Source: an uncultured Oscillospiraceae bacterium (GTDB lineage Bacteria; Bacillota; Clostridia; Oscillospirales; Oscillospiraceae). From it: a stretch of 27,305 bases of DNA. Made by a program: the position numbers and the translations under genes. Below are positions 13,431-25,800 of this stretch, piece by piece. The notes under the pieces were generated by a model. That model worked only from the letters and a program-made list of their open reading frames with translations. It made no database searches and was not told the origin of the DNA. The stretch is taken from NCBI GenBank assembly GCA_934667815.1, contig CAKUMO010000031.1, forward strand, positions 1 through 27,305, in the 5' to 3' direction. Positions within the stretch are counted from its first letter, which is position 1. Every line of letters starts with the position of its first letter.

Positions 13431-13577
13431 GAGGTGCCGACCGAGCCGGGTCTCGGCATTGACATCGATGTGGACAAGCTGCTTGCCCATACGCCCAAGG
13501 ACTTCCCCGCTCCCTCGCTGACGCCGCTATGCAATGAGTATCCCAGCAAGGCCTTGGGGCACGGAGGCCGCGCATGA
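13425..13577 (+). pseudogene. Enolase-superfamily sugar-acid dehydratase, C-terminal fragment
   Basis: About 50 codons remain: YLEVPTEPGLGIDIDVDKL followed by a short tail and stop. The VPxxPGLGxxxD pattern is the usual C-terminus of mandelate-racemase/galactonate-dehydratase-type enzymes. Its stop TGA overlaps the kduD-like ATG (ATGA), preserving the old operon junction. The catalytic barrel is missing. The lost enzyme would have fed a keto-deoxy sugar acid pathway, which suits the neighbouring KduD-like gene and the LacI remnant. Confidence 0.7.
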
Positions 13578-14332
13578 ACGAGCTGTTTTCCCTCAAGGGC
13601 AAGGTCGCCATCGTCACCGGTTCCGGCTCCGGCATCGGTCAGGGCATTGCACTGGGGCTTGCAGAAGCAGGCGCCGACATCGTCGCCGTCTATCATTCCG
13701 CGCCCGGTCAGACACCGGAACGCGTGCAGACGCTCGGCCGCAAATGCGTCGCCGTCTGTGCCGATATGACGCGCATGGATGCCGTTCCTGTCATCGTCAA
13801 GGCCGCGCTGGATGCCTTCGGGCAGATTGACATTCTCGTCAACGCCGCCGGTCAGATCTACCGCGAACCCGCACTGACACATCCGGAGGAAAAGTGGGAC
13901 AGCGTGATGAACGTCAACGCCAAAATTCCCTATTATCTCTCTCAGGCCGTCGCGCAGCACATGGTCGCGCAGAAAATTCCCGGACGCATCATCAACATCG
14001 CCTCGATGAATTCCTACTTTGGCGGCATTCTCGTGCCGGGCTACTCGGCCTCGAAGCACGCCGTCGTCGGTCTGACCAAGGCACTGTCAAACGAGTGGGC
14101 GCAGTACGGCATCTGCGTCAACGCACTTGCGCCCGGCTGGATCGCAACCAAAATGACGACGGCCGTCCGCGAAAACGAAACACGCAACGCCGAAATTCTC
14201 TCACGCATTCCCGCCGGCCGGTGGGGAAACCCGGAGGATTTCAAAGGTCCCGCGGTTTTCCTCGCAAGCGAGGCCGCAGCCTACGTTTCCGGCTGCACCA
14301 TTCCCGTAGACGGCGGTTTCTTGGGACGATAA
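13574..14332 (+). CDS. SDR dehydrogenase, KduD-like (2-deoxy-D-gluconate 3-dehydrogenase type)
   Basis: A 252-residue short-chain dehydrogenase. Visible are the NAD site TGSGSGIGQG at 15-24, NAAG at 90-93, and the catalytic S144, Y157, K161 (YSASK). The end PVDGGFLG is typical. Overall wording (FSLKGKVAIVTG, IASMNSYFGGILVPGYSASK, RIPAGRWGNPEDF) is very close to KduD, which interconverts keto-deoxy-gluconates in uronate breakdown. Substrate is inferred. The start has GGAGG 6 nt upstream and overlaps the preceding remnant stop. It looks intact, although its pathway partners are largely lost here. Confidence 0.85.
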   Translation: MNELFSLKGKVAIVTGSGSGIGQGIALGLAEAGADIVAVYHSAPGQTPERVQTLGRKCVAVCADMTRMDAVPVIVKAALDAFGQIDILVNAAGQIYREPALTHPEEKWDSVMNVNAKIPYYLSQAVAQHMVAQKIPGRIINIASMNSYFGGILVPGYSASKHAVVGLTKALSNEWAQYGICVNALAPGWIATKMTTAVRENETRNAEILSRIPAGRWGNPEDFKGPAVFLASEAAAYVSGCTIPVDGGFLGR

Positions 14333-14368: not shown

Positions 14369-14389
14369 TCCGTGAAGAAAGGACAGGTC

Positions 14390-14917
14390 ATGGTAAGACA
14401 TATCACAATGTGGAAGCTCAGGGATTTCGCCTGGGGTAACGACAAAGAGACAAATTACGAGCTTTCAAAGCAGCAGGGACTTGCTCTGAAGGACAAATTC
14501 CCGAAGCTGCTGCACACGGAATTTCACCGCGGGTTCAAATGCGGCGGTCAGAATTATGACATGGTCAACATTCTGGAATTTGCCACGCGCGAAGATCTGG
14601 AAGAATTTCTGGCAAGCCCGCTGCACCAGCAGGCACTGCTGGATATGTTCGCGCGGGAGGCCGTCGCGCCGATGTTTGAGCGCATGGTCGCAACGGACAC
14701 AGTTCACGCGCTGCGCCGTGCCAGAGAAATTGAAAGCATGGCGCAGGTGCTCGAAACAGACAATTTGGATCCCACAATGTCCCGCGCCGCCGCAAAAAAG
14801 CTCTACTGGTCGGCGAACAGCGGCATGAAGCAGGCATTCGCTGCACATATCCCGACGGACTATCGCGCGGTGGTGCGTTATCTGGAAAACTACCAAAAAA
14901 GTTCCCGGCAGGCTTGA
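14390..14917 (+). CDS. Chimeric ORF: Dabb domain joined to tail of a 6PGDH/DUF1932-type dehydrogenase
   Basis: A 175-residue ORF in two parts. Residues 1-86 (MVRHITMWKL to LLDMF) read as a Dabb ferredoxin-like barrel lacking its last strand. Residues about 88-168 match the C-terminus of the next gene (its residues 210-289) at about 45 of 81 positions by eye, including APMFERMV, RRARE and TMSRAA. The simplest explanation is an in-frame deletion between a Dabb gene and a following dehydrogenase paralogue. It starts at 14390 behind AAGGA. The upstream GTG at 14372 overlaps the binding site. The Rossmann domain is missing, so it is not a dehydrogenase. Whether it folds is unknown. Confidence 0.75.
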   Translation: MVRHITMWKLRDFAWGNDKETNYELSKQQGLALKDKFPKLLHTEFHRGFKCGGQNYDMVNILEFATREDLEEFLASPLHQQALLDMFAREAVAPMFERMVATDTVHALRRAREIESMAQVLETDNLDPTMSRAAAKKLYWSANSGMKQAFAAHIPTDYRAVVRYLENYQKSSRQA

Positions 14918-14940
14918 CAGCCGGGAGAAAGGACTCTATT

Positions 14941-15834
14941 ATGGTAATTGGATTTATCGGTCTCGGAGATGTCGGCAGCCGTTTCTCCGGCGGTATCGCA
15001 AGAGACGGCGGCGCGGATGTGCTGGGCTATGATTTGAAGCTGGGACAGTCCGGCTTTCAGGAAAAGCAGGAGCGCTGCGTGCAATGCGGTGTAAAGCTCG
15101 CTGAAAGCAAGCAGGCGCTCGTAGACGGCTCCGATATTCTTATCGCCGCGACAAGCTGCGCCGAGGCGATCGAAACGGCAAAGGATTATCTTCCATGGCT
15201 GCGCCCCGGGCAGTATTATGTAGACGTCAACTCTGCCGTTCCGAAAATCAAGAAGGAAATTCAGGCGCTTGTGGAAGCTAAGGGTGCGCACTTCGTTGAC
15301 GGTGGCATCATGGACTCGCCCATGAACGGCTGGCACCGAATTCCGGTCGCACTGTCCGGCGGTCAGGCCGGCTACGTCGCGGACGTGCTCAACGGCTACG
15401 GCATGAACATGCGCAATGTCGGCGCAGAGGTTGGGCAGGCCTCCAGCCTGAAGATCCTGCGCAGCATCTTCACCAAGGGGCTGGAGGCGCTGCTGCTGGA
15501 AACCTTTGCCTCTGCCTATCATTACGGCGTTTTGGACGAGGTTTACGGCTCCATCAGGGAAATGCTCGAGCGCGAACCATTTGCGCCCATGTTTGAGCGC
15601 ATGGTCACAACCGATGTGATTCATGCCTACCGCCGTGCCAGGGAGGTCGGCGCAGTGGCCGATATGCTCGATGACGAGGGCTTTGATTCCACCATGTCGC
15701 GTGCCGCCTGCAACAAGCTGATGTGGTCGGCAGCCAGCGGTGTAAGAGAGCATTTCGGGGAAACGATCCCCGAGGATTACCGTGACGTCGTGCGCTATTT
15801 TGCCGCGCTGCGCAGCAAGGAGGCAAACGCATGA
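14941..15834 (+). CDS. NAD(P)-dependent dehydrogenase, 6-phosphogluconate-dehydrogenase-like with DUF1932 C-terminus
   Basis: A 297-residue protein. The N-terminal Rossmann domain opens with GFIGLGDVGSRFSGGI at 4-19 (GxGxxG). The substrate loop is at DGGIMDSPMN (120-129), and the presumed catalytic lysine is in SSLKILRSIFTKG at 168-180. The helical C-terminal half (about 190-290) fits the DUF1932 domain of beta-hydroxyacid-dehydrogenase relatives. It probably oxidises a hydroxy acid related to the lost sugar-acid pathway; the substrate is unknown. The start at 14941 follows GGGAGAAAGGA. It overlaps the Dabb gene by 4 bp. Confidence 0.85.
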   Translation: MVIGFIGLGDVGSRFSGGIARDGGADVLGYDLKLGQSGFQEKQERCVQCGVKLAESKQALVDGSDILIAATSCAEAIETAKDYLPWLRPGQYYVDVNSAVPKIKKEIQALVEAKGAHFVDGGIMDSPMNGWHRIPVALSGGQAGYVADVLNGYGMNMRNVGAEVGQASSLKILRSIFTKGLEALLLETFASAYHYGVLDEVYGSIREMLEREPFAPMFERMVTTDVIHAYRRAREVGAVADMLDDEGFDSTMSRAACNKLMWSAASGVREHFGETIPEDYRDVVRYFAALRSKEANA

Positions 15835-16154
15835 TTCGCCACGTTGTGCTTTGGAAGCTCAAGCCGGAGGCGGCAGCTCCGGAGGTTCTCGCGCAAAACC
15901 TTGCGCAAATTTACCGCAACTGCCAGCGCATGGTCGAGGAAATGCCGCTGATTCGCCGTTTTTCCTTCTACAAGGGCATAAAGCAGGGTAAGGATCTCTA
16001 CGAGGCTGCCACCGCGATGGACTTCGATTCTTTGGAGGCTCTGGCAGAGTTTCAGGCTTCTCCCGCGCACCACGATCCGGATTCCCGTGCCTTCTGCGAG
16101 CTTGTCAGGGAGCGCAAGGCCGTGATCGATTTTGAAATTCAGGAGAATCAATAG
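15831..16154 (+). CDS. Dabb family (stress-responsive A/B barrel) protein
   Basis: A complete 107-residue single-domain protein. It opens with MIRHVVLWKLKPEA and carries the SLEALAEFQASPAHHD helix, ending with the RKAVIDFEI strand, all typical of Dabb dimeric barrels. Some relatives are enzymes and many are uncharacterised. Its ATG overlaps the dehydrogenase stop (ATGA), implying joint translation and perhaps a shared pathway. It is the intact counterpart of the Dabb half in the chimeric ORF. Confidence 0.85.
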   Translation: MIRHVVLWKLKPEAAAPEVLAQNLAQIYRNCQRMVEEMPLIRRFSFYKGIKQGKDLYEAATAMDFDSLEALAEFQASPAHHDPDSRAFCELVRERKAVIDFEIQENQ

Positions 16155-18162: not shown

Positions 18163-18948
18163 TTATGAATCCATCAGCTCATATGCCAGCACGCGCGTTT
18201 CGGCCACATCGGCAGATTTGAGCGACTCCGGCAGCATGTAGCTGCTCAATTCAAACAGGCTGCTCGAGCCTGCGGGGATCGTCTGGAAGGGTACATCCGA
18301 TAGCATGCCGATCAGATGCCCGTCCGCGTCCAGCAGCAGCGCCGCAATACAGAAGTGCTTACTGTCCTGCTCGGTAAAGTTGCGCACAGTCGCGACCAGT
18401 TCCAGCCCGCCGTAACGGGAATCCGAAAGCACGGAATCAACGATCGTATAGTTCACGGCTGCCTCAGCGGCGGCCACCGCTTTCGGTTCCAATTCCAGCG
18501 TCAGGCCGTCGGTCGAATCGGTATCCAGATAGGTCTCGACGTAATAGTATCCCGTCTCGCCCGGCTGGACAATCTGCGGGAAAGCCTCGACCGTCTCGTC
18601 TGCCGCAAGAGACTTGCCCTCGGCATTGCAGACGCGCATGGGCGCATCCTCCAGCAGCATGGGCGTGTCGCCGGTATTCTTCACCTCGGCAATGACCTGC
18701 GCCCAAATTTCTTCGGCGCGGTTGCGATAGACATTCAGTCGCTGATCCGTCAGCTCAAAACGAATCTCCGGCTCAGCCTGTGATTCCGAAGCCTCACTGC
18801 TCCCGGAAGGCGGAGTCGTCGGCAGCTCGCTCTCAGTCGGCTGAGCGGACGGCGCTTCGGACGCAGGCTCAGTCGGCTCCGGTGTCTTGGAACAGGCGCA
18901 GAGCAGAATGAGCGCTGTGGCAAGCGCGATCAAAATATAACGTTTCAT
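18163..18948 (-). CDS. Secreted lipoprotein of unknown function at the end of the FAS-like operon
   Basis: A 261-residue protein. It begins MKRYILIALATALILLCACSK, a signal peptide with a lipobox ending at C19. A Ser/Pro/Thr/Glu-rich spacer (about 22-58) follows, then two beta-rich repeats. Each repeat has the wording of FxLyD-like or immunoglobulin-like domains: VIAEVKNTGDTPMLLEDA with VQPGETGYYYVE, and LVATVRNFTEQDSKHFCIAALL with IPAGSSSLFELS. It is expected on the outer face of the membrane. The ATG at 18948 has GGAGG 8 nt upstream and lies 13 nt after the flavoprotein stop, so it appears co-transcribed. No enzyme role is claimed. Confidence 0.75.
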   Translation of the reverse strand: MKRYILIALATALILLCACSKTPEPTEPASEAPSAQPTESELPTTPPSGSSEASESQAEPEIRFELTDQRLNVYRNRAEEIWAQVIAEVKNTGDTPMLLEDAPMRVCNAEGKSLAADETVEAFPQIVQPGETGYYYVETYLDTDSTDGLTLELEPKAVAAAEAAVNYTIVDSVLSDSRYGGLELVATVRNFTEQDSKHFCIAALLLDADGHLIGMLSDVPFQTIPAGSSSLFELSSYMLPESLKSADVAETRVLAYELMDS

Positions 18949-18961
18949 GGGTATTTCCTCC

Positions 18962-19651
18962 CTATTCGACGATCTGCCAGTGCGGACGCGTGATGCGCTC
19001 AAAGGTCGCGTCTGACAGGATCGGCCGGTTCAGCCGCTCCTGTATTTCGGACGCGATGCGCCGCCCCTGTGCAACATTCTGCCCGGCAAGACGCACATCG
19101 GCAAGATAGGCATCCTTCTGCCGCTTGCAGGCGTCAATGACAAACAGCTCTCCCTGCGGGCAGAAAATCGCATCATATCGTCCGTCGCAAATCAGATCAT
19201 ACTCCGCACGCACGGCGGCATAATTCCGCTCGATACCGGTGTGCCAGCAGGTGGAAAGCAGCACCAGACGCTTTTGGAGCATCTTCGGGTCGCGCAGCTC
19301 ATGCTGCGCCTGCCCGCTCCAGCCGTAGGCTTTGGTATAGGGCAGGCAGCGATCCGTCAGGGTCTTGAGCGTCCCCGGAATGCCATAAAAATACAGGGGA
19401 AAGCTCTCGACAATCACGTCTGCGCGTTCAATGGCCGCATAGACACGCTCCATATCGTCGCGCTGCACACAGCAGCCGGGCGTTTTCGTCCAGCAGCAGA
19501 GGCAGCCGAGGCAGGGATGCAAATTCAGACGCGACAGCTCCAAGGTCTCGACCTGCGTACCCTCCGGAAAACCGGAAAGAAACGCGGTCGTCAGCACGCG
19601 GGTATGGCTGTTTTCCCCTCTGGGGCTGGCATCCAGAACGAGGAGTCTCAT
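18962..19651 (-). CDS. Flavodoxin-fold NAD(P)H-dependent FMN reductase / iron-sulfur flavoprotein-like
   Basis: A 229-residue protein. It starts MRLLVLDASPRGENSHTR, the phosphate loop of NADPH-dependent FMN reductases. A cysteine cluster follows (HPCLGCLCCWTKTPGCCVQRDDM, about 46-68), as in iron-sulfur flavoproteins and related oxidoreductases. SFPLYFYGIPGTLKTLTDR is the flavin-binding loop. It likely carries FMN and shuttles electrons. Its ATG overlaps the fabZ stop by 4 bp, tying it to acyl-chain synthesis. It has no resemblance to FabI/FabK enoyl reductases, so it cannot simply be assigned that role, though a reductive or desaturating step is imaginable. Confidence 0.8.
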   Translation of the reverse strand: MRLLVLDASPRGENSHTRVLTTAFLSGFPEGTQVETLELSRLNLHPCLGCLCCWTKTPGCCVQRDDMERVYAAIERADVIVESFPLYFYGIPGTLKTLTDRCLPYTKAYGWSGQAQHELRDPKMLQKRLVLLSTCWHTGIERNYAAVRAEYDLICDGRYDAIFCPQGELFVIDACKRQKDAYLADVRLAGQNVAQGRRIASEIQERLNRPILSDATFERITRPHWQIVE

Positions 19652-20097
19652 TGCGTCTCTCCGTAGATGGAATTCTGTGCGACTGCGGTGAACATCAATT
19701 CACCCTTGGCACGCGTCTGACCGTCACACTGGATGTCCACTGCAAAGCTGTAAACGCCCGCACCGCCGCGCAGAAGCTCAGCGTGCAGCTCCAGACGGTC
19801 GCCGGGAATGACCGGCTTGACAAACTTGAAATCGCGCACCTTTAAGAGCACATAAACCTTGTTTTCGTCGCTGCCGTCGGCCTCGATGACAAGCGAGCAG
19901 AGCTGCGCCGCGCTCTCGATGAGCAAAACGCCCGGCATAATGGGCAGTCCCGGCATATGACCCTGAAAATACGGCTCGTTGACGGAAACGCATTTGATGC
20001 CCGTGGCGGACTTGCCCGGCTCAAGCGCCGTGACCCGCTCGATCATCTGGAAGGGCGGGCGCTGGCGGATGCGGGCGTTGATTTCCAAAAGGTTCAT
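19648..20097 (-). CDS. fabZ: 3-hydroxyacyl-ACP dehydratase, FabZ-type hotdog
   Basis: A 149-residue hotdog-fold enzyme that removes water from 3-hydroxyacyl-ACP. The catalytic pair is present: H47 in YFQGHMPGLPIMPGV and E61 in LLIESAAQL. Length and the N-terminal RQRPPFQMIERV match FabZ. Paralogues acting in polyene pathways look much the same. The start follows GGAGGG and overlaps the fabG stop by 4 bp. Confidence 0.9.
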   Translation of the reverse strand: MNLLEINARIRQRPPFQMIERVTALEPGKSATGIKCVSVNEPYFQGHMPGLPIMPGVLLIESAAQLCSLVIEADGSDENKVYVLLKVRDFKFVKPVIPGDRLELHAELLRGGAGVYSFAVDIQCDGQTRAKGELMFTAVAQNSIYGETQ

Positions 20098-20825
20098 AGG
20101 CTCAGCCCTCCGTCCAGCACGAGCGTCTGCCCGGTCAGATAGGAAAGCTCCGGCTGACAGAGCGTGCAGACGGCGTCCGCGACCTCGCTCGGAGCGGCAA
20201 AGCGCCCCATGGGCACGGCCTTGAGATAGCCCTCTTTCTGCTCTGCGGGAATGTGGTCGAGCATTTCCGTCTCGACAAAGCCGGGTGCGACCGCATTGAC
20301 GCGAATGCCATAGGGCGCAAGCTCCTTGGCCAGCGTAGCCGTGAGCGCATTGACCGCACCCTTGGTCGCGCTGTAAACGCTCTGGCCGGGGATGGCCATA
20401 ATGGAGCTGACAGAGGAAATATTGACGATAACGCCGGATTTCTTGCGCATCATCTTCAGCGCAGCCTGCTGTGCGCAGTGGAAATAACCCTTGATGTTGA
20501 TGTCGAGGCTGCGCGTGAGCGAATCCTCGGTGAGCATCAGGAGGAAGCGGTCGTCCACGACGCCCGCGTTGTTGACCAGCACGTCTACGCCGCCCAGCTC
20601 ACGCACAACCGTGCGGAACATGTCCTTGACGGAGGGCAGGTCAGAGGTATCGGCCTTCACTGCCAGCGCGCGCACGCCGAAGCTCTCCAGCTCCTGTACG
20701 ACCGCCTGCGCGGCGGCTTCATTGGAAACATAGTTGACGGCGACGTCATAGCCGCGCTTGGCCAGCGCCACGGCGCAGGCCTTACCGATGCCGCGTGACG
20801 CGCCCGTTACGATTGCAACACTCAT
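20094..20825 (-). CDS. fabG: 3-oxoacyl-ACP reductase FabG
   Basis: A 243-residue SDR with NADPH loop TGASRGIG at 7-14, NNAG at 85-88, N110, and catalytic S138, Y151 and K155 (YSATK). It ends TLVLDGGLSL. It reduces 3-oxoacyl-ACP to 3-hydroxyacyl-ACP. The ATG at 20825 overlaps the ketosynthase stop by 4 bp (ATGA) and has GGGAGGG 8 nt upstream. A longer reading to 20900 would lie inside the ketosynthase gene and is rejected. Confidence 0.93.
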   Translation of the reverse strand: MSVAIVTGASRGIGKACAVALAKRGYDVAVNYVSNEAAAQAVVQELESFGVRALAVKADTSDLPSVKDMFRTVVRELGGVDVLVNNAGVVDDRFLLMLTEDSLTRSLDINIKGYFHCAQQAALKMMRKKSGVIVNISSVSSIMAIPGQSVYSATKGAVNALTATLAKELAPYGIRVNAVAPGFVETEMLDHIPAEQKEGYLKAVPMGRFAAPSEVADAVCTLCQPELSYLTGQTLVLDGGLSL

Positions 20826-22954
20826 GCGTTTGCCCTCCCGACGATGACGGCGCTGGCGCAGCCCGTCCAGCCGCCCGCAACGGCGGCGGCGTACTGGCAC
20901 TCGCCCTGTGCAACTGCCTGAACCGCCTTTTCCAGCGCGTAGGCCGCTGCGCAGGCGCGGCTGTTGCCGATCTGCGCGGTCACGTCCTGTGCCGCGTCCG
21001 TCGCAGCATAGAAAATTTTGCCGAGCTTCGCTTCCTCCACACCCGCGTCGGCGCAGGCTTCGCGCAGCGTGCGGCCCAGCAGCTTCTGCGTGGATTCCGA
21101 GCCGTAGGCCGCCGGCTCGTGCAGGGAAGCGCTGCCGAGGACGTTGGCATACACCCGCGCGCCGCGCGCCTTTGCGTGCGCCTGTGTTTCAAGGACTGCC
21201 GTCACGCTGCCCTCGGCCAGATTCTCGGCCTTGCCGAGCGCGGCATAGAGGGCAGCAATATTCTCGGAGGTCTCGTCGGTGCCGGAGGTCAGGATGACAA
21301 CCGCCGTGCCGTTTTGCAGCATCATGCAGGCCGTCGTGACCGCCTGCAAGCCCGCCTGTGCGCCGTTTGCAATGGTGGCGCAGTAGCCCTTCAGCCCGGT
21401 AAAGATGGAAAGATGGCCGCCTGCGGCATTGTAGACCGTATTGGGGAAGCTGAATGCGCTGCCCGCCGCCGGTCCCTTCTCACAGACCGTCTTCTGGAAT
21501 GCGGAGATCTCGGCCATGGGGCCGTCCGCCGTGCCGATGACGCTGCCGACCATGGAGGCGTTCTCCGGCGTGATCTCGAAGCCTGCATCGCGCAGGGCAT
21601 CCACGCCGCTGAGCACCTGCATCTGGCTGAAGCGGTCGAGCTTACGATAGAAACCCAGCTTCACACCGCGTGCATTGAAGCCCTCTGCCGTCAGCTCGAC
21701 GGACGGGCCGGCGAGTTTACCGAAGCCCGTCACGGCGATGGGTTCTTTTGCATAAGCGGGTGCATTGTGTTCGTTCTTGCTGAAAATAATGCTCGCGTTT
21801 GTGCCGCCGAAGGCAAAGGAGTTGGACATGACGTTCTGCATTTCCTTTTTTCTGCCGACATTCACGACGCAATCAAGCTGGCCGGCCTTCTCCGCAAGCG
21901 CGGGAAGATCCTCGGGCGCATAGTTGGTCGTGGGAAGGACGGTGTCCTCGGTGAGTGCCTTGACGCTCAGGACGGCCTCCACCGCGCCAGCCGCTCCGAG
22001 GCAGTGGCCCGTCATGGACTTTGTCGAGCTGACGGACGGCGTGCAGCCCTCGAACAGCTTGTGCAGCGACAGAAATTCCGCCGCGTCGTTTTTCTTCGTA
22101 CCGGTGCCGTGGGCATTGATATAGCCGATCTCGGCAGGCGCGACCTTACCGTTTTCCATAGCGCGGCGAAGCGCAGCCATCTGGCCCTCGCCCTCCGGCT
22201 GCGGCGCGGTGATGTGGAAGGCATCGGAGCTGACACCGTAGCCCGCAACCTCGCAATAGATCTTTGCGCCACGCGCGACCGCGTGCTCGTATTCCTCCAC
22301 GACCACGACGCCCGAGCCTTCGCCCAGCGTAATGCCGTTGCTGTGGTTCAACGGAGAGCAGGCCTCCGCAGACAGCGCATGCAACGCGTTAAAGCCGGAA
22401 TAGGCCAGAGACGAAAATGCATCCGTACCGCCGGCAAGATAGACCTTTCCCTTACCCGCGCGGATCAGATCGCAGGCGTAGGCCACACTCATCGTGCCCG
22501 CTGCGCAGGCGTTGACGATGTTGGCCGTCTCGCCGGATGCGCCCAGCTCGTGCGCTACGTCACAGGCGATGGACGAAGCGGACATTTTGAGAATGTCCGC
22601 CTTGTGCTCCTCGCCCCTCAGCAGGCCGGAATAATAGTGATCGATGCTTGCGGCACCGCCGACGCAGCTGCCGAGGACAACGCCCGCATCATGCAGGTCG
22701 CTCTGCGGGAGCTTGCTGTCCTGCACGGCCTCCTGCGCGGCCTTCAGGCACAGGCGCACCGAGCGGTCATACTGCGGTGCGGGCAGCGTATCGCAGTGCA
22801 CCTCGGCGCCGACATGGGAAACGCAGCCCTCTGTGGAAACGCTCTCGACCTCGCGGATGCCGCTCACGCCCTTGCGGATATTGTCCCAGCAGGTCGGAAC
22901 GTCATTGCCCGCAGCGCAGATCAGGCCGAGGCCGGTGATAACATAACGGCTCAT
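20822..22954 (-). CDS. Fused tandem ketosynthase: active FabF-type KS plus inactive KS (chain-length-factor-like)
   Basis: One 710-residue polypeptide, where FabF is usually about 410. Residues 1-395 form a full FabF/KASII domain: nucleophile C150 in VNACAAGTMS, H282 in NAHGTGT, K312 and H317 in TKSMTGHCLGAAGA, and the closing SFAFGGTNAS. Residues about 404-710 begin again with PIAVTGFGKLAG and follow the KS fold (SFPNTVYNAAGGHLSI, then ATIANGAQAGLQAV). The aligned catalytic positions are A532 (Cys), A650 (first His) and N664 (second His), so this half cannot condense. That matches KS plus chain-length-factor pairs of type II PKS or aryl-polyene systems, here in one chain. There is no frameshift or stop between the halves. 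The ATG overlaps the acpP stop by 4 bp. Confidence 0.9.
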   Translation of the reverse strand: MSRYVITGLGLICAAGNDVPTCWDNIRKGVSGIREVESVSTEGCVSHVGAEVHCDTLPAPQYDRSVRLCLKAAQEAVQDSKLPQSDLHDAGVVLGSCVGGAASIDHYYSGLLRGEEHKADILKMSASSIACDVAHELGASGETANIVNACAAGTMSVAYACDLIRAGKGKVYLAGGTDAFSSLAYSGFNALHALSAEACSPLNHSNGITLGEGSGVVVVEEYEHAVARGAKIYCEVAGYGVSSDAFHITAPQPEGEGQMAALRRAMENGKVAPAEIGYINAHGTGTKKNDAAEFLSLHKLFEGCTPSVSSTKSMTGHCLGAAGAVEAVLSVKALTEDTVLPTTNYAPEDLPALAEKAGQLDCVVNVGRKKEMQNVMSNSFAFGGTNASIIFSKNEHNAPAYAKEPIAVTGFGKLAGPSVELTAEGFNARGVKLGFYRKLDRFSQMQVLSGVDALRDAGFEITPENASMVGSVIGTADGPMAEISAFQKTVCEKGPAAGSAFSFPNTVYNAAGGHLSIFTGLKGYCATIANGAQAGLQAVTTACMMLQNGTAVVILTSGTDETSENIAALYAALGKAENLAEGSVTAVLETQAHAKARGARVYANVLGSASLHEPAAYGSESTQKLLGRTLREACADAGVEEAKLGKIFYAATDAAQDVTAQIGNSRACAAAYALEKAVQAVAQGECQYAAAVAGGWTGCASAVIVGRANA

Positions 22955-23196
22955 TGTTCCATGTTTGCAGCGACATAGGCTGCCAGCGCGTTGATGGTCT
23001 GGAAGTGCTCGCGGTCAGCGCCGGTCATATCCACGCCGAACAGCTCGTCAATACCGGAGATGATCTCCAGAGAGTCTACGGAGTCCAGTCCGATGTCGCC
23101 GCCGAACAGCTCTGCATCGTAGTCGAGCATATCCTCGGGGATGCGCAGGTTTTCATGGATCATTTCCTTGATCTTTTCAGCAATTTGTTCGTTCAT
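22951..23196 (-). CDS. Acyl carrier protein
   Basis: An 81-residue acidic four-helix carrier. The phosphopantetheine serine is S39 in DIGLDSVDSLEII. The DSVDSLE form differs from the DSLDxVE form of most housekeeping ACPs and is closer to what I recall in polyene-type or accessory ACPs; this is a soft cue. It would carry the growing acyl chain for the fused KS next door, whose start overlaps its stop. It is preceded by a 35-nt gap with its own -10 element. The start at 23196 has AAAGGA about 10 nt upstream. Confidence 0.92.
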   Translation of the reverse strand: MNEQIAEKIKEMIHENLRIPEDMLDYDAELFGGDIGLDSVDSLEIISGIDELFGVDMTGADREHFQTINALAAYVAANMEQ

Positions 23197-23230: not shown

Positions 23231-23259
23231 ATTATACCTCTGTGAAGCGGATAACGCAA
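23231..23259 (-). promoter_or_regulatory. Possible internal promoter before acpP
   Basis: On the minus strand TTGCGT (23259-23254), a 17-nt spacer and a perfect TATAAT (23236-23231). The -10 overlaps the accA stop codon. The -35 is weak. Confidence 0.5.
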
Positions 23260-24047
23260 CCGTTTTCCTCATAGACACCGATGCGGCGGAAGCGGCGATA
23301 GCGCTGCTCGAGAAGCTCGGCCGGCGTCAGGCGGCAAAGCTCCTGCAGATCCATGGAAAGTTCCACGGCCAGCGCCGCGCACATACCGGAAAAGTCCTCG
23401 AAGTTTTCGGGGATGATCCGTTCGGCCACCTGAAGCTGCAGCATGTCCTCCGCCGTGATGTGCAGACATTCGGCAGCGTCGGGTGCACGTCCGGCATCCT
23501 TCCAGAGGATGCTCGCGCAGCCCTCCGGCGAAACGACGGAATAGACCGCATTTTCCAGCATATACACGCGGTTGGCTGCCGCCAGCGCCAGAGCGCCACC
23601 GCTGCCGCCCTCACCGATGACCACGGAGATCACCGGCGTGCGCAGACCCATCATTTCCAGAATATTTTCCGCAATCGCCTCGCCCTGTCCGCGCTCCTCG
23701 GCCTCCGCGCCGCAGTAAGCGCCCAGGGTATCAACGAAGCAGATAACCGGGCGGTGAAATTTCTCCGCCTGCTTCATCAGGCGCAGCGCCTTGCGGTAGC
23801 CCTCGGGCATGGGACAGCCGAAGTGATTGTTCATGCGCGACTCCAGATCGATGCCCTTGTCGATCGCAATATAGGTCACGGGACGGCCTTGCAGCGTCCC
23901 GATGCCCGCCTGAATCGCCGGGTCTTCACCGAAGCGTCTGTCACCGCAGAGATCGAGCCGGTCGGAAAACAGCGCGTTGATATAGGCGCGGCCCGTGGGA
24001 CGGGCATTGTTTCTGGCCGTTTTCAGGCGTTCATAAGCCGTGGTCAT
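23232..24047 (-). CDS. accA: Acetyl-CoA carboxylase carboxyltransferase subunit alpha
   Basis: A 271-residue carboxyltransferase alpha subunit. It contains the crotonase-type oxyanion glycine run [18 protein letters not shown], then [22 protein letters not shown] and [18 protein letters not shown]. It is somewhat shorter at the N-terminus than the roughly 319-residue E. coli form. With AccD it moves carboxyl from carboxybiotin to acetyl-CoA to give malonyl-CoA. The second ATG (24047) is preferred: it has GGAGG 9 nt upstream and makes the 4-bp ATGA overlap with accD. The ATG at 24053 sits only 3 nt from that site. Confidence 0.93.
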
Positions 24048-24889
24048 GTCCATTCACCTCCATGCAGCCGCAGGAGCTTGCCGAGTGTCTCGGGCAGAAG
24101 CCTGCGTTCAACGACCGCATCCACAAAGCCGTGCTCCCGCAGGAATTCCGCCTTCTGGAAATTCCCGGGAAGCTGGGATCCGGTCGTCTGCTCGACGACA
24201 CGGCGGCCTGCAAAGCCGACCAGCGCATTCGGCTCAGCCAGAATCACGTCCGCCTGCATCGCGAAGGAAGCCGTCACGCCGCCCGTCGTGGGGTCGGTCA
24301 GAACGGCGATGTACAAAAGCCCGGCTTCACTGTGGCGCTTAACCGCGCCGGAGCACTTGGCCATCTGCATCAGGGACACCACGCCCTCCTGCATTCTTGC
24401 GCCGCCCGAGGCCGTGAAGCCGATGACGGGCAGATGCTGCGCAAGCGCCAGCTCGAAAAGCCGCGTGATCTTCTCGCCCACCACGGAACCCATGGAGGCC
24501 ATGAAAAAGCTGGAATCCATCACAAAGGTCGCGCACATCACACCGCCGATGGACGCCGTGCCGCACAGCACCGCCTCCTGCTCCCCCGTAGCCTCTCTGG
24601 TTTTTTCCAACTTTTCGGCGTAGCCCGGGAATTGCAGAAAATCGACGCTCGTCAGGTCCTTTGCGATCTCCTGAAAGCTGTCCGGATCGAAGATTTGCGC
24701 GATACGTTCCCGCGCGGTCATGCGCAGATATTTGCTGCACGTCGGGCAGACCTTTGCGTGCAGTAAAATATCGTCATACGGATGCTCCGTGTGGCAGGCC
24801 GGGCAAACGACCGGCTTATGTACCGGCTTCTTTTCCGGTTCCGGCGCATGCTCCTGCACCCGCTCACGCAGCAGTTCAAGAATCATCAT
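24044..24889 (-). CDS. accD: Acetyl-CoA carboxylase carboxyltransferase subunit beta
   Basis: A 281-residue partner of AccA. The N-terminal zinc ribbon is intact (CPAC then CPTC, spaced 15). The crotonase-type core follows, with [20 protein letters not shown] and [19 protein letters not shown]. The start at 24889 overlaps the fabD stop; a second ATG one codon later has better spacing to GGGAG. No AccB (biotin carrier) or AccC (biotin carboxylase) is encoded in this operon, so those subunits must come from elsewhere. Confidence 0.94.
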
Positions 24890-25800
24890 AGGACTCCCGC
24901 CTCCCGCAGCTTTTCAATGCCGTCCGGCGTCTCCACCGCGTAAGCGCGGCAGTCTGCCAGATTCTTCTGCGCAAGCCGGCGCAAAACGCTGCCCGCGCCG
25001 CACTCAATAAATGTATCGAAGCCCTGTGCCCCGAGCGCCTGCATGGTCTTGGCCCAGCGCACCGGGTGGTTGATCTGCTCAAACAGCAGCGTGCGCACGT
25101 CCGAACCGTAAGGCTCCGCCGTGCGGTTGGCGTAAGTCGTGATTTCCGGTTTTGTGAACGCAACATTGCTGATATACGCGTGGAAGTTTCGCGCCGCGCC
25201 GTCCATAAAGGGCGAATGGAAACCGCTGCTGACCTTCAAAGGCACGCTTCTGCCGCCTGCTGCGGCGACATCGTCATAGAACTTCTCCAGCTCTGCGCGT
25301 TCCCCCGCGACCGCGACCTGTCCGTCGCAGTTGTAGTTGACGGGATAGACGTGCTCATAGGCAGCGCACAGGCGCTCGACCGTCTCATCCGAGAGCTTCA
25401 CCACCGCAGCCATGGTCGCATCATGCTCCCTGGCCGCCTCGGCCATAAAGCTGCCGCGGGCGCAGGCAAGGCGGAAGCCCGTCAGCGCATCATAGGCGCC
25501 CGCGAAGGCCAGCGCCGGAAGCTCACCCAGCGAGAAGCCCGCGACCGCCTCGGGGACAAGGCCGCATTCCTTCAGCGCCAGCGCCGCCGCGATGTCCGCC
25601 AGGTACAGGCAAGGCTGAGTGTTTTCCGTATGCTGGAGCGTCTGCTCATCGCCCTCAAACATCTGATGCAGCGTGCCGGGGCGGTATTCCTCCGCCGCAT
25701 CGAACAGCGCACGCACGGAGGCGTACGATCCATAAAGCTCCTTGCCCATGCCGACATGCTGCGCACCCTGTCCGGAAAACAGGAAAGCTGTTTTTCCCAT
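24886..25800 (-). CDS. fabD: Malonyl-CoA:ACP transacylase FabD
   Basis: A 304-residue acyltransferase that loads malonyl onto ACP. It has the N-terminal FSGQGAQ motif at 8-14, the nucleophile S90 in GFSLGE (the usual GHSLGE has histidine before the serine), R115 in CARGSFM and H195 in SSGFHSPFM. Length is normal. It is the first gene of the operon, with AAAGGATG as ribosome-binding site. The operon promoter region lies in the 280-bp gap to infC. Confidence 0.93.

What the first reader, a model, noticed from the sequence alone, without database searches (positions are those of the whole stretch)
20822..22954. Single-chain ketosynthase plus chain-length-factor-like pair
Two KS folds are read through without a stop in 710 residues. 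The first keeps C150, H282, K312 and H317. In the second the aligned positions are A532, A650 and N664, while the surrounding fold words (PIAVTGFG, SFPNTVYNAAGGH, IANGAQAG) remain. Type II PKS and aryl-polyene systems use separate KS and inactive CLF subunits. A bacterial FabF with a CLF-like half fused at its C-terminus, inside a FAS-type operon, is unusual and may define a new architecture.
Basis: partly seen in the sequence, partly recalled or inferred. Interest (0 to 1): 0.82.

Follow-up and report, generated by a model that had tools for sequence, protein, structure and literature searches.

The report
Single-chain ketosynthase with built-in inactive partner
A gut-type bacterium carries one protein that joins a chain-extending enzyme with an intact active site to a second copy of the same fold that has lost it, inside a small lipid or polyene-like gene cluster; the design is real and shared by many bacteria, but what it makes is not known.

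Summary
On the MINUS strand (22954..20822) one uninterrupted 710-aa ORF encodes a complete FabF-like ketosynthase (C150, H282, K312, H317) followed by a second ketosynthase fold without the Cys and both His. In 62 aligned relatives the catalytic set is intact in 62 of 62 first halves, and Cys and both His are absent in 62 of 62 second halves. All 43 full-length genome matches are open frames. AlphaFold2 gives pTM 0.93, and the best PDB match of the whole chain is the PfaC KS-CLF didomain 6RIW. So single-chain KS-CLF is not new as such. What I did not find described in the library searched is a free-standing KS-CLF didomain in a type II cluster. The window's gene set (FabD, AccD, AccA, ACP, KS-CLF, FabG, FabZ, flavodoxin-like) recurs in other Clostridia, often with a PlsC-like acyltransferase; 32 of 40 carriers also have a normal FabF. 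A distant fused family shares both halves. Best reading: a dedicated iterative synthase for an unsaturated, probably polyene, acyl chain. The product is inferred. New variant of a known kind.

The parts
24886..25800 (-). FabD-like malonyl-CoA:ACP transacylase, first gene of the operon
   Evidence: PF00698 2.6e-36; TIGR00128 246.7 bits against cut-off 260.9
24044..24889 (-). AccD-like carboxyltransferase beta subunit (overlaps FabD stop)
   Evidence: TIGR00515 321.3 bits against 317.45
23232..24053 (-). AccA-like carboxyltransferase alpha subunit (overlaps AccD)
   Evidence: PF03255 2.2e-104; NF041504 332.7 bits against 300
22951..23196 (-). acyl carrier protein, 81 aa, GLDSVDS around the likely phosphopantetheine serine; its stop overlaps the KS-CLF start
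   Evidence: PF00550 1.2e-11; TIGR00517 46 bits against 70.45; motif and overlap read
20822..22954 (-). KS-CLF: KS half residues 1-395 (C150, H282, K312, H317), linker about 393-405, CLF-like half 406-710 (A532, A650, N664)
20822..21739 (-). CLF-like half alone (305 aa): SAFSFPNTVYNAAGG, ANGAQAG in place of NACAAG, GTDE
20094..20825 (-). FabG-like ketoreductase (ATGA overlap with the KS-CLF stop; start taken at the ATG at 20825)
   Evidence: PF13561 6.7e-65; TIGR01830 257.9 bits against 297.75; the FabL enoyl reductase model NF005975 gives 222.4 against 328; start read
19648..20097 (-). FabZ-like dehydratase
   Evidence: PRK00006 123.2 bits against 113
18962..19651 (-). flavodoxin-fold / NADPH-FMN-reductase-like protein, recurrent neighbour of KS-CLF
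   Evidence: PF02525 3.1e-17, PF03358 1.4e-16; near KS-CLF in 11 of 12 distinct places
18163..18948 (-). putative lipoprotein with FxLYD domain; last gene downstream, membership in the cluster doubtful
   Evidence: NF038353 27.6 bits against 23 (scanned from 18939); among the places seen in the window only

Best explanation
The ORF is a free-standing single-chain KS-CLF, the chain-extending enzyme of a self-contained iterative type II synthase. AccA/AccD and FabD would supply malonyl-ACP on the dedicated ACP. The KS half would condense it, while the dead second half would pair with the first inside the same chain and shape the acyl pocket, as CLFs do. FabG and FabZ would reduce and dehydrate after each round. 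No clear enoyl reductase lies in the window operon, so the double bonds should stay, giving an unsaturated, probably polyene, acyl chain that in relatives could be handed to a PlsC-like acyltransferase. SHOWN: the fusion, the kept and lost catalytic residues, the predicted fold and intramolecular pairing, the recurring gene set, and a separate FabF in most carriers searched. INFERRED: chain-length control, polyene chemistry, lipid fate, and the role of the flavodoxin-like protein.
For: Model of 710 aa: pLDDT 89.4, pTM 0.93. Top Foldseek match of the whole chain: 6RIW PfaC KS-CLF, TMq 0.81 over 887 columns, rmsd 7.1. KS residues 62 of 62; aligned Cys and both His absent in 62 of 62 second halves; distances of the two halves correlate, Mantel r 0.91, 0 of 999 permutations as high. 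KS halves and CLF halves are each one group (98/99 and 100/100). Same gene set (FabD, AccD, AccA or AccDA fusion, ACP, KS-CLF, FabG, FabZ, flavodoxin-like) in 4 of 12 distinct places mapped (window, L142, L143, L154); PlsC-like gene in 7 of 12. FabF elsewhere in the genome: above cut-off in 32 of 40 carriers, partial matches in 5 more. Patchy: 34 of 188, 6 of 394 and 2 of 392 genomes of three orders. KS-CLF + KR + DH is the published make-up of the polyene-forming HR type II PKS (PMC10698177, passages).
Against: No product, expression or enzyme data. In the order of G001 the cluster (ACP, KS-CLF, FabG, flavodoxin-like) has no FabZ of its own and lies next to a normal FAS operon that includes FabK, so full reduction is possible there. 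The FabG-like SDR belongs to a superfamily that also holds enoyl reductases (FabL model below cut-off), and the flavodoxin-like protein could itself be a reductase. No PlsC-like gene was found in the window. The window's genome is not held, so a second FAS set in it is not shown. The CLF half alone models less well (pLDDT 74, 13 sequences). The 6RIW match has a high rmsd.
Confidence: 0.6

Rival explanations
1. It is simply the housekeeping elongating KS of this organism, a FabF that has gained an inert dimer partner, in the main FAS operon.
For: It is operonic with FabD, AccD, AccA, FabG and FabZ; the KS half passes PRK07314 (412 against 387 bits), and AccD and FabZ (PRK00006) pass their cut-offs. 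In 3 of 40 carriers (G106, G748, G859) no other FabF was found.
Against: 32 of 40 carriers have a FabF above cut-off and 5 more a partial match. The fused KS halves reach at most 379.4 bits against 493.75 (421.8 for the window). ACP, FabD and FabG fall below their equivalog cut-offs. Distribution is patchy. The 3 exceptions are assemblies of 1.6-1.9 Mb whose completeness is not told.
Confidence: 0.15
2. The second half is not inert but a decarboxylase (KSQ-like) that makes the starter unit, using the conserved Gln next to the lost Cys.
For: Gln533 is kept in 61 of 62 sequences.
Against: The ungapped alignment puts Gln533 one residue after the nucleophile; the nucleophile position is variable and often bulky, and both His are gone. 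In KSQ domains Gln sits at the Cys position (recalled). The distant fused family has His at that position in 8 of 8, and the two of its sequences printed read HAAG, without Gln.
Confidence: 0.08
3. It extends chains made by the main FAS (a long-chain elongase for membrane lipids), with FabK or the flavodoxin-like protein reducing the enoyl group, so the product is a saturated or sparsely unsaturated long chain.
For: In the order of G001 the gene set lies beside FabH-FabK-FabD-FabG-FabF. PfaC KS-CLF does the final elongation in PUFA synthesis (PMC12895367, passages).
Against: The window, L142, L143 and L154 carry their own malonyl supply, KR and DH, and no FabK match near by.
Confidence: 0.15

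Closest known systems
PfaC KS-CLF didomain of PUFA synthases (PDB 6RIW) and HglC
   Same: KS and inactive CLF in one chain, packed as a pair; best structural match of the whole model, TMq 0.81.
   Different: PfaC carries DH domains and HglC an AT domain after the CLF (PMC3098273, passages); here the didomain stands alone among single-function genes. Identity in the match is 17%, rmsd 7.1.
KS-CLF heterodimers of highly reducing type II PKS: ishigamide Iga11-Iga12 (6KXD), aryl polyene ApeO-ApeC
   Different: Two polypeptides there, one here. The CLF half falls just under PF13723 (24.7 against 25 bits), and PF13723 rang in none of the 4 carriers among the 9 genomes searched.
PDB 9S5H/9S5I, chains B and C (named 3-oxoacyl-ACP synthase; organism not shown by the tool)
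   Same: Chain B resembles the KS half (1.5e-110; Cys seen); chain C lacks the Cys and shares FPNTV..NA and the NG elbow with the CLF half. Chain C falls on the side of the fused CLF halves at 99/96.
   Different: Separate chains. Chain B groups with the fused KS halves in only 68% of bootstrap trees.
FabF, beta-ketoacyl-ACP synthase II
   Same: KS half has the fold, the catalytic residues and 38-40% identity to B. subtilis FabF.
   Different: Below the fabF equivalog cut-off; extra inactive half; separate FabF in 32 of 40 carriers.
Distant fused family of about 780 aa; the named rows say Solirubrobacteraceae or Thermoleophilaceae, the query itself Myxococcales
   Same: KS half with C/H/K/H 8 of 8; second half without Cys or His at the three aligned positions except His in place of the Cys; FPNTVYNAAGG in the two sequences printed; both halves group with the clostridial ones (99/96 and 100/100).
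   Different: His at the Cys position; the seed P0238 is 29% identical to the window's CLF half; the clostridial CLF profile covers its second half mostly from position 40 on. Gene neighbourhood not examined.

Membership tests
KS-CLF (type II PKS condensing pair) | KS with intact Cys-His-His and Lys | tested here: met
   62 of 62
KS-CLF (type II PKS condensing pair) | partner of the same fold lacking the catalytic residues | tested here: met
KS-CLF (type II PKS condensing pair) | two separate polypeptides | tested here: not met
   one open frame in the window and in 43 of 43 full-length genome matches
KS-CLF (type II PKS condensing pair) | partner sets chain length | not testable with these tools
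   needs enzyme assay
PfaC / PUFA synthase | KS and CLF in one chain, intramolecular pair | tested here: met
   prediction only
PfaC / PUFA synthase | DH domains after the CLF and PfaA, B, D neighbours | tested here: not met
   chain ends at residue 710; the operon neighbours are single-domain genes
FabF equivalog TIGR03150 | score at or above 493.75 bits | tested here: not met
   421.8 bits
PF13723 (Ketoacyl-synt_2) | gathering score 25 bits | tested here: not met
   22.4 (whole), 24.7 (half alone); 4 of 13 halves match at E<=0.01
highly reducing type II PKS cluster | KS-CLF, KR, DH and ACP together | tested here: met
   window operon
highly reducing type II PKS cluster | no enoyl reductase in the cluster | tested here: inconclusive
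   no FabK match in the window; FabK follows in 3 of 12 places, all in the order of G001; SDR and flavodoxin-like proteins could act as reductases
highly reducing type II PKS cluster | polyene product | not testable with these tools
   needs chemistry

The most novel reading that the evidence does not exclude
The fused KS-CLF marks a class of type II synthases not described in the papers searched, in which the condensing pair became one gene before the clostridial and the thermoleophilian families parted, and in gut Clostridia it builds conjugated polyene chains that are loaded into membrane lipids. That would give uncultured gut bacteria a polyene lipid pathway of their own; fecapentaene-type ether lipids are one recalled candidate, with no support from any call here.
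Probability: 0.3. Interest if true: 0.78.

Novelty: new variant of a known kind. Interest (0 to 1): 0.55.

Why it matters
A minimal one-gene KS-CLF is a ready-made test bench: the partner ratio is fixed at 1:1 and the CLF half can be swapped to ask how it sets chain length. It also gives a marker for a set of gut clostridial clusters that databases call only beta-ketoacyl synthase, and whose product, if a polyene lipid, would be an unrecorded part of gut lipid chemistry.

Tried and rejected
Frameshift or merged neighbours: no sign of it, since 43 of 43 full-length matches are open with no stops inside. Those searches used thresholds that only a match over both halves reaches, so separate KS and CLF genes would not have been listed.

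Stand-alone CLF relatives: searched with the CLF-half alignment (568 of 7997 candidates at E<=1e-10, 120 listed). Of the 119 new proteins most are pieces of fused proteins; by eye about 9 begin near the CLF start without a KS piece, and I cannot tell broken from separate genes. Candidates of that search were limited in length, so full fused proteins were shut out.

Housekeeping FAS: weakened. KSQ-like decarboxylase: weakened.

In some searches at most 2 candidates per genome were scored, so those rates may be low. The class search gave 3 of 391, all three already in the G001 order list. A family search around G003 gave 0 of 16.

Literature: nine listings (at most 20 titles shown each) showed no free-standing single-chain KS-CLF from Clostridia. 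The fusion phrases occurred in 4 papers, all on PUFA synthases or producers. PMC10132072, a type II PKS catalogue, has no occurrence of fused, fusion or Clostridia (find). Celluxanthenes (PMC12144888, passages) use a type I PKS. A search for fecapentaene (listing) gave 19 papers, none with a gene cluster in the title. PMC11747023 (passages) gave nothing on this. No preprints and few subscription papers are held, so absence here is weak evidence.

The window's organism was not identified: the closest of the genome loci compared is 54% identical. L150 (Colwellia) gave no usable KS for the tree. In the first tree the aryl polyene KS rows had very long branches and were left out of the second and third. 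Rows were also thinned by hand: 6 halves dropped, rows of 7 more proteins. Long-branch warnings were printed.
Full report
What is there. The coordinates hold one open frame on the minus strand, 22954 to 20822, 710 aa. It sits in a tight minus-strand operon: FabD (25800-24886), AccD, AccA, ACP, KS-CLF, FabG, FabZ and a flavodoxin-like protein (to 18962). ATGA-type overlaps join ACP to KS-CLF, KS-CLF to FabG, FabG to FabZ and FabZ to the flavodoxin-like gene (read; families). No FabH, FabK, AccB or AccC turned up among the 19 window proteins scanned (9); not every window ORF was scanned. A generic SDR at 13574-14332 on the other strand matches PF13561, whose Pfam title is enoyl-ACP reductase, as the operon's own FabG does; such matches do not tell ketoreductases from enoyl reductases.

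Two halves. Residues 1-395 are a FabF-type KS with C150, H282, K312 and H317. Residues 406-710 are a shorter KS fold. Across 62 aligned relatives (chosen from the 120 listed) the KS residues are unchanged in 62 of 62, and the aligned Cys and both His are absent in 62 of 62 second halves. The position of the Cys varies (A, T, I, F, W and more), while the next residue, Gln533, is kept in 61 of 62. The second half is under constraint: GSAF.FPNTVYNAAGG, A(N)..QAG and GTDE are nearly invariant. The distances of the two halves correlate (Mantel r 0.91, 0 of 999 permutations as high), which fits long co-inheritance. The second half diverges faster (mean distance 0.49 against 0.32).

Relatives. Of 8000 candidates scored, 7921 match at E<=1e-3, ordinary KS included; 115 of the 120 listed are 690-790 aa. 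Among whole genomes full-length matches were found in 34 of 188 in the order of G001 (Oscillospiraceae bacterium SIG422; 35 matches), 6 of 394 drawn from the order of G002 (uncultured Ruminococcus sp.) and 2 of 392 drawn from the order of G004 (Lachnospiraceae bacterium): 43 matches in 42 genomes, all without stops inside. A draw of 391 from the class gave 3, all already in the G001 order list. The distribution is patchy. PF13723 rang in 2 of 9 genomes searched and in none of the 4 carriers among them.

Not the usual FabF. Of 40 carriers searched with TIGR03150 (those), 32 have a FabF above the cut-off, 5 have only partial FabF matches besides the fused one (G093, G109, G117, G136, G147) and 3 (G106, G748, G859) show only the fused protein; no fused KS half passes the cut-off (best 379.4 bits).

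Gene neighbourhood. In one search I mapped 13 loci, 12 distinct places (L001 and L139 are the same contig): window, L002, L127, L130, L138-L143, L153, L154, out of 24 places fetched. KS-CLF is followed by FabG in 11 of 12, has a flavodoxin-like gene near by in 11 of 12 and an ACP in 10 of 12 (L139 ends at the contig edge; L141 has none of the three). A FabZ next to the cluster is there in 9 of 12, a PlsC-like acyltransferase in 7 of 12. The full set with FabD and AccD/AccA occurs in the window, L142, L143 and L154 (AccD-AccA fused there); L153 has FabD and a 513-aa ORF with a weak AccD match, not tested further. L142 and L143 add an acyl-ACP thioesterase-like gene, L153 an AMP-binding ligase and a second acyltransferase, L138 a PPTase-like gene. 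In L002, L127 and L130 (order of G001) the cluster lies beside a normal FAS operon with FabH and FabK. The other 12 places, all from that order, were mapped only coarsely: all show FabG and the flavodoxin-like family after KS-CLF, and 10 of 12 the FabH family near by (L134 ends at the contig edge, L131 does not show it).

Ancestry. In a 53-row tree the 16 KS halves form one group (98/99) and the 16 CLF halves another (100/100). A second family of about 780 aa appeared from the CLF search and a search with one of its members (4680 of 7998 candidates at E<=1e-60, which may include ordinary KS; 120 listed). Its named rows say Solirubrobacteraceae or Thermoleophilaceae; the query was labelled Myxococcales. 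In 8 of its proteins the KS residues are kept, the second half has His at the Cys position and neither His of the triad, and both halves group with the clostridial halves (KS 99/96, CLF 100/100). PDB 9S5H holds what looks like a two-chain counterpart: chain C lacks the Cys and falls with the CLF halves (99/96), chain B with the KS halves in 68% of bootstrap trees. The simplest account is an old KS/CLF pair fused once before the two families parted. Branches are long, the program warns of that, and two fusions are not excluded.

Known versus new. Single-chain KS-CLF is known from PfaC [KS-CLF-DH2] and HglC [KS-CLF-AT] (PMC3098273, passages), and the PfaC KS-CLF didomain performs the final elongation (PMC12895367, passages). 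Two-chain KS-CLF with KR and DH makes polyenes (PMC10698177, passages); [quoted passage not shown] I found no paper in the held library on a free-standing one-chain KS-CLF in a type II cluster (listings). Hence: new variant of a known kind.

How it most likely works. Malonyl-CoA (AccA/AccD) goes by FabD to the dedicated ACP; the KS half extends; the inactive half completes the dimer and bounds the pocket; FabG and FabZ finish each round; without an enoyl reductase the double bonds remain. Shown here: residues, predicted fold, recurring genes, a separate FabF in most carriers searched. Inferred: chemistry, chain length, lipid fate. I put 0.6 on the dedicated iterative synthase with an unsaturated product, and 0.3 on the bolder reading of a polyene lipid pathway.

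Noticed in passing
window 20795-22978 (+): A 727-aa open frame on the opposite strand spans the whole KS-CLF gene; most likely a shadow of the GC-rich coding strand.
   Followed up: partly
P0242-P0360: A separate fused KS-CLF family of about 780 aa, named rows from Solirubrobacteraceae and Thermoleophilaceae, annotated only as beta-ketoacyl synthase; gene neighbourhood unknown.
   Followed up: partly
L154 12315-14012: AccD and AccA fused into one 565-aa protein inside a KS-CLF cluster.
   Followed up: partly
L127 12892-16761 and its family: A roughly 1285-aa protein with periplasmic-binding-like, GGDEF and EAL domains lies upstream of the KS-CLF cluster in the order of G001.
   Followed up: no
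PDB 9S5H/9S5I chains B and C: A solved pair of ketosynthase-like chains, one without the Cys, that is a near two-chain relative by sequence; source organism not shown by the tools.
   Followed up: partly
window 14372-14917, 14914-15834 and 15831-16154 (+): Adjacent genes: a Dabb-domain protein that also has a DUF1932 match, an NAD-binding_2 / DUF1932 dehydrogenase, and another Dabb protein.
   Followed up: no
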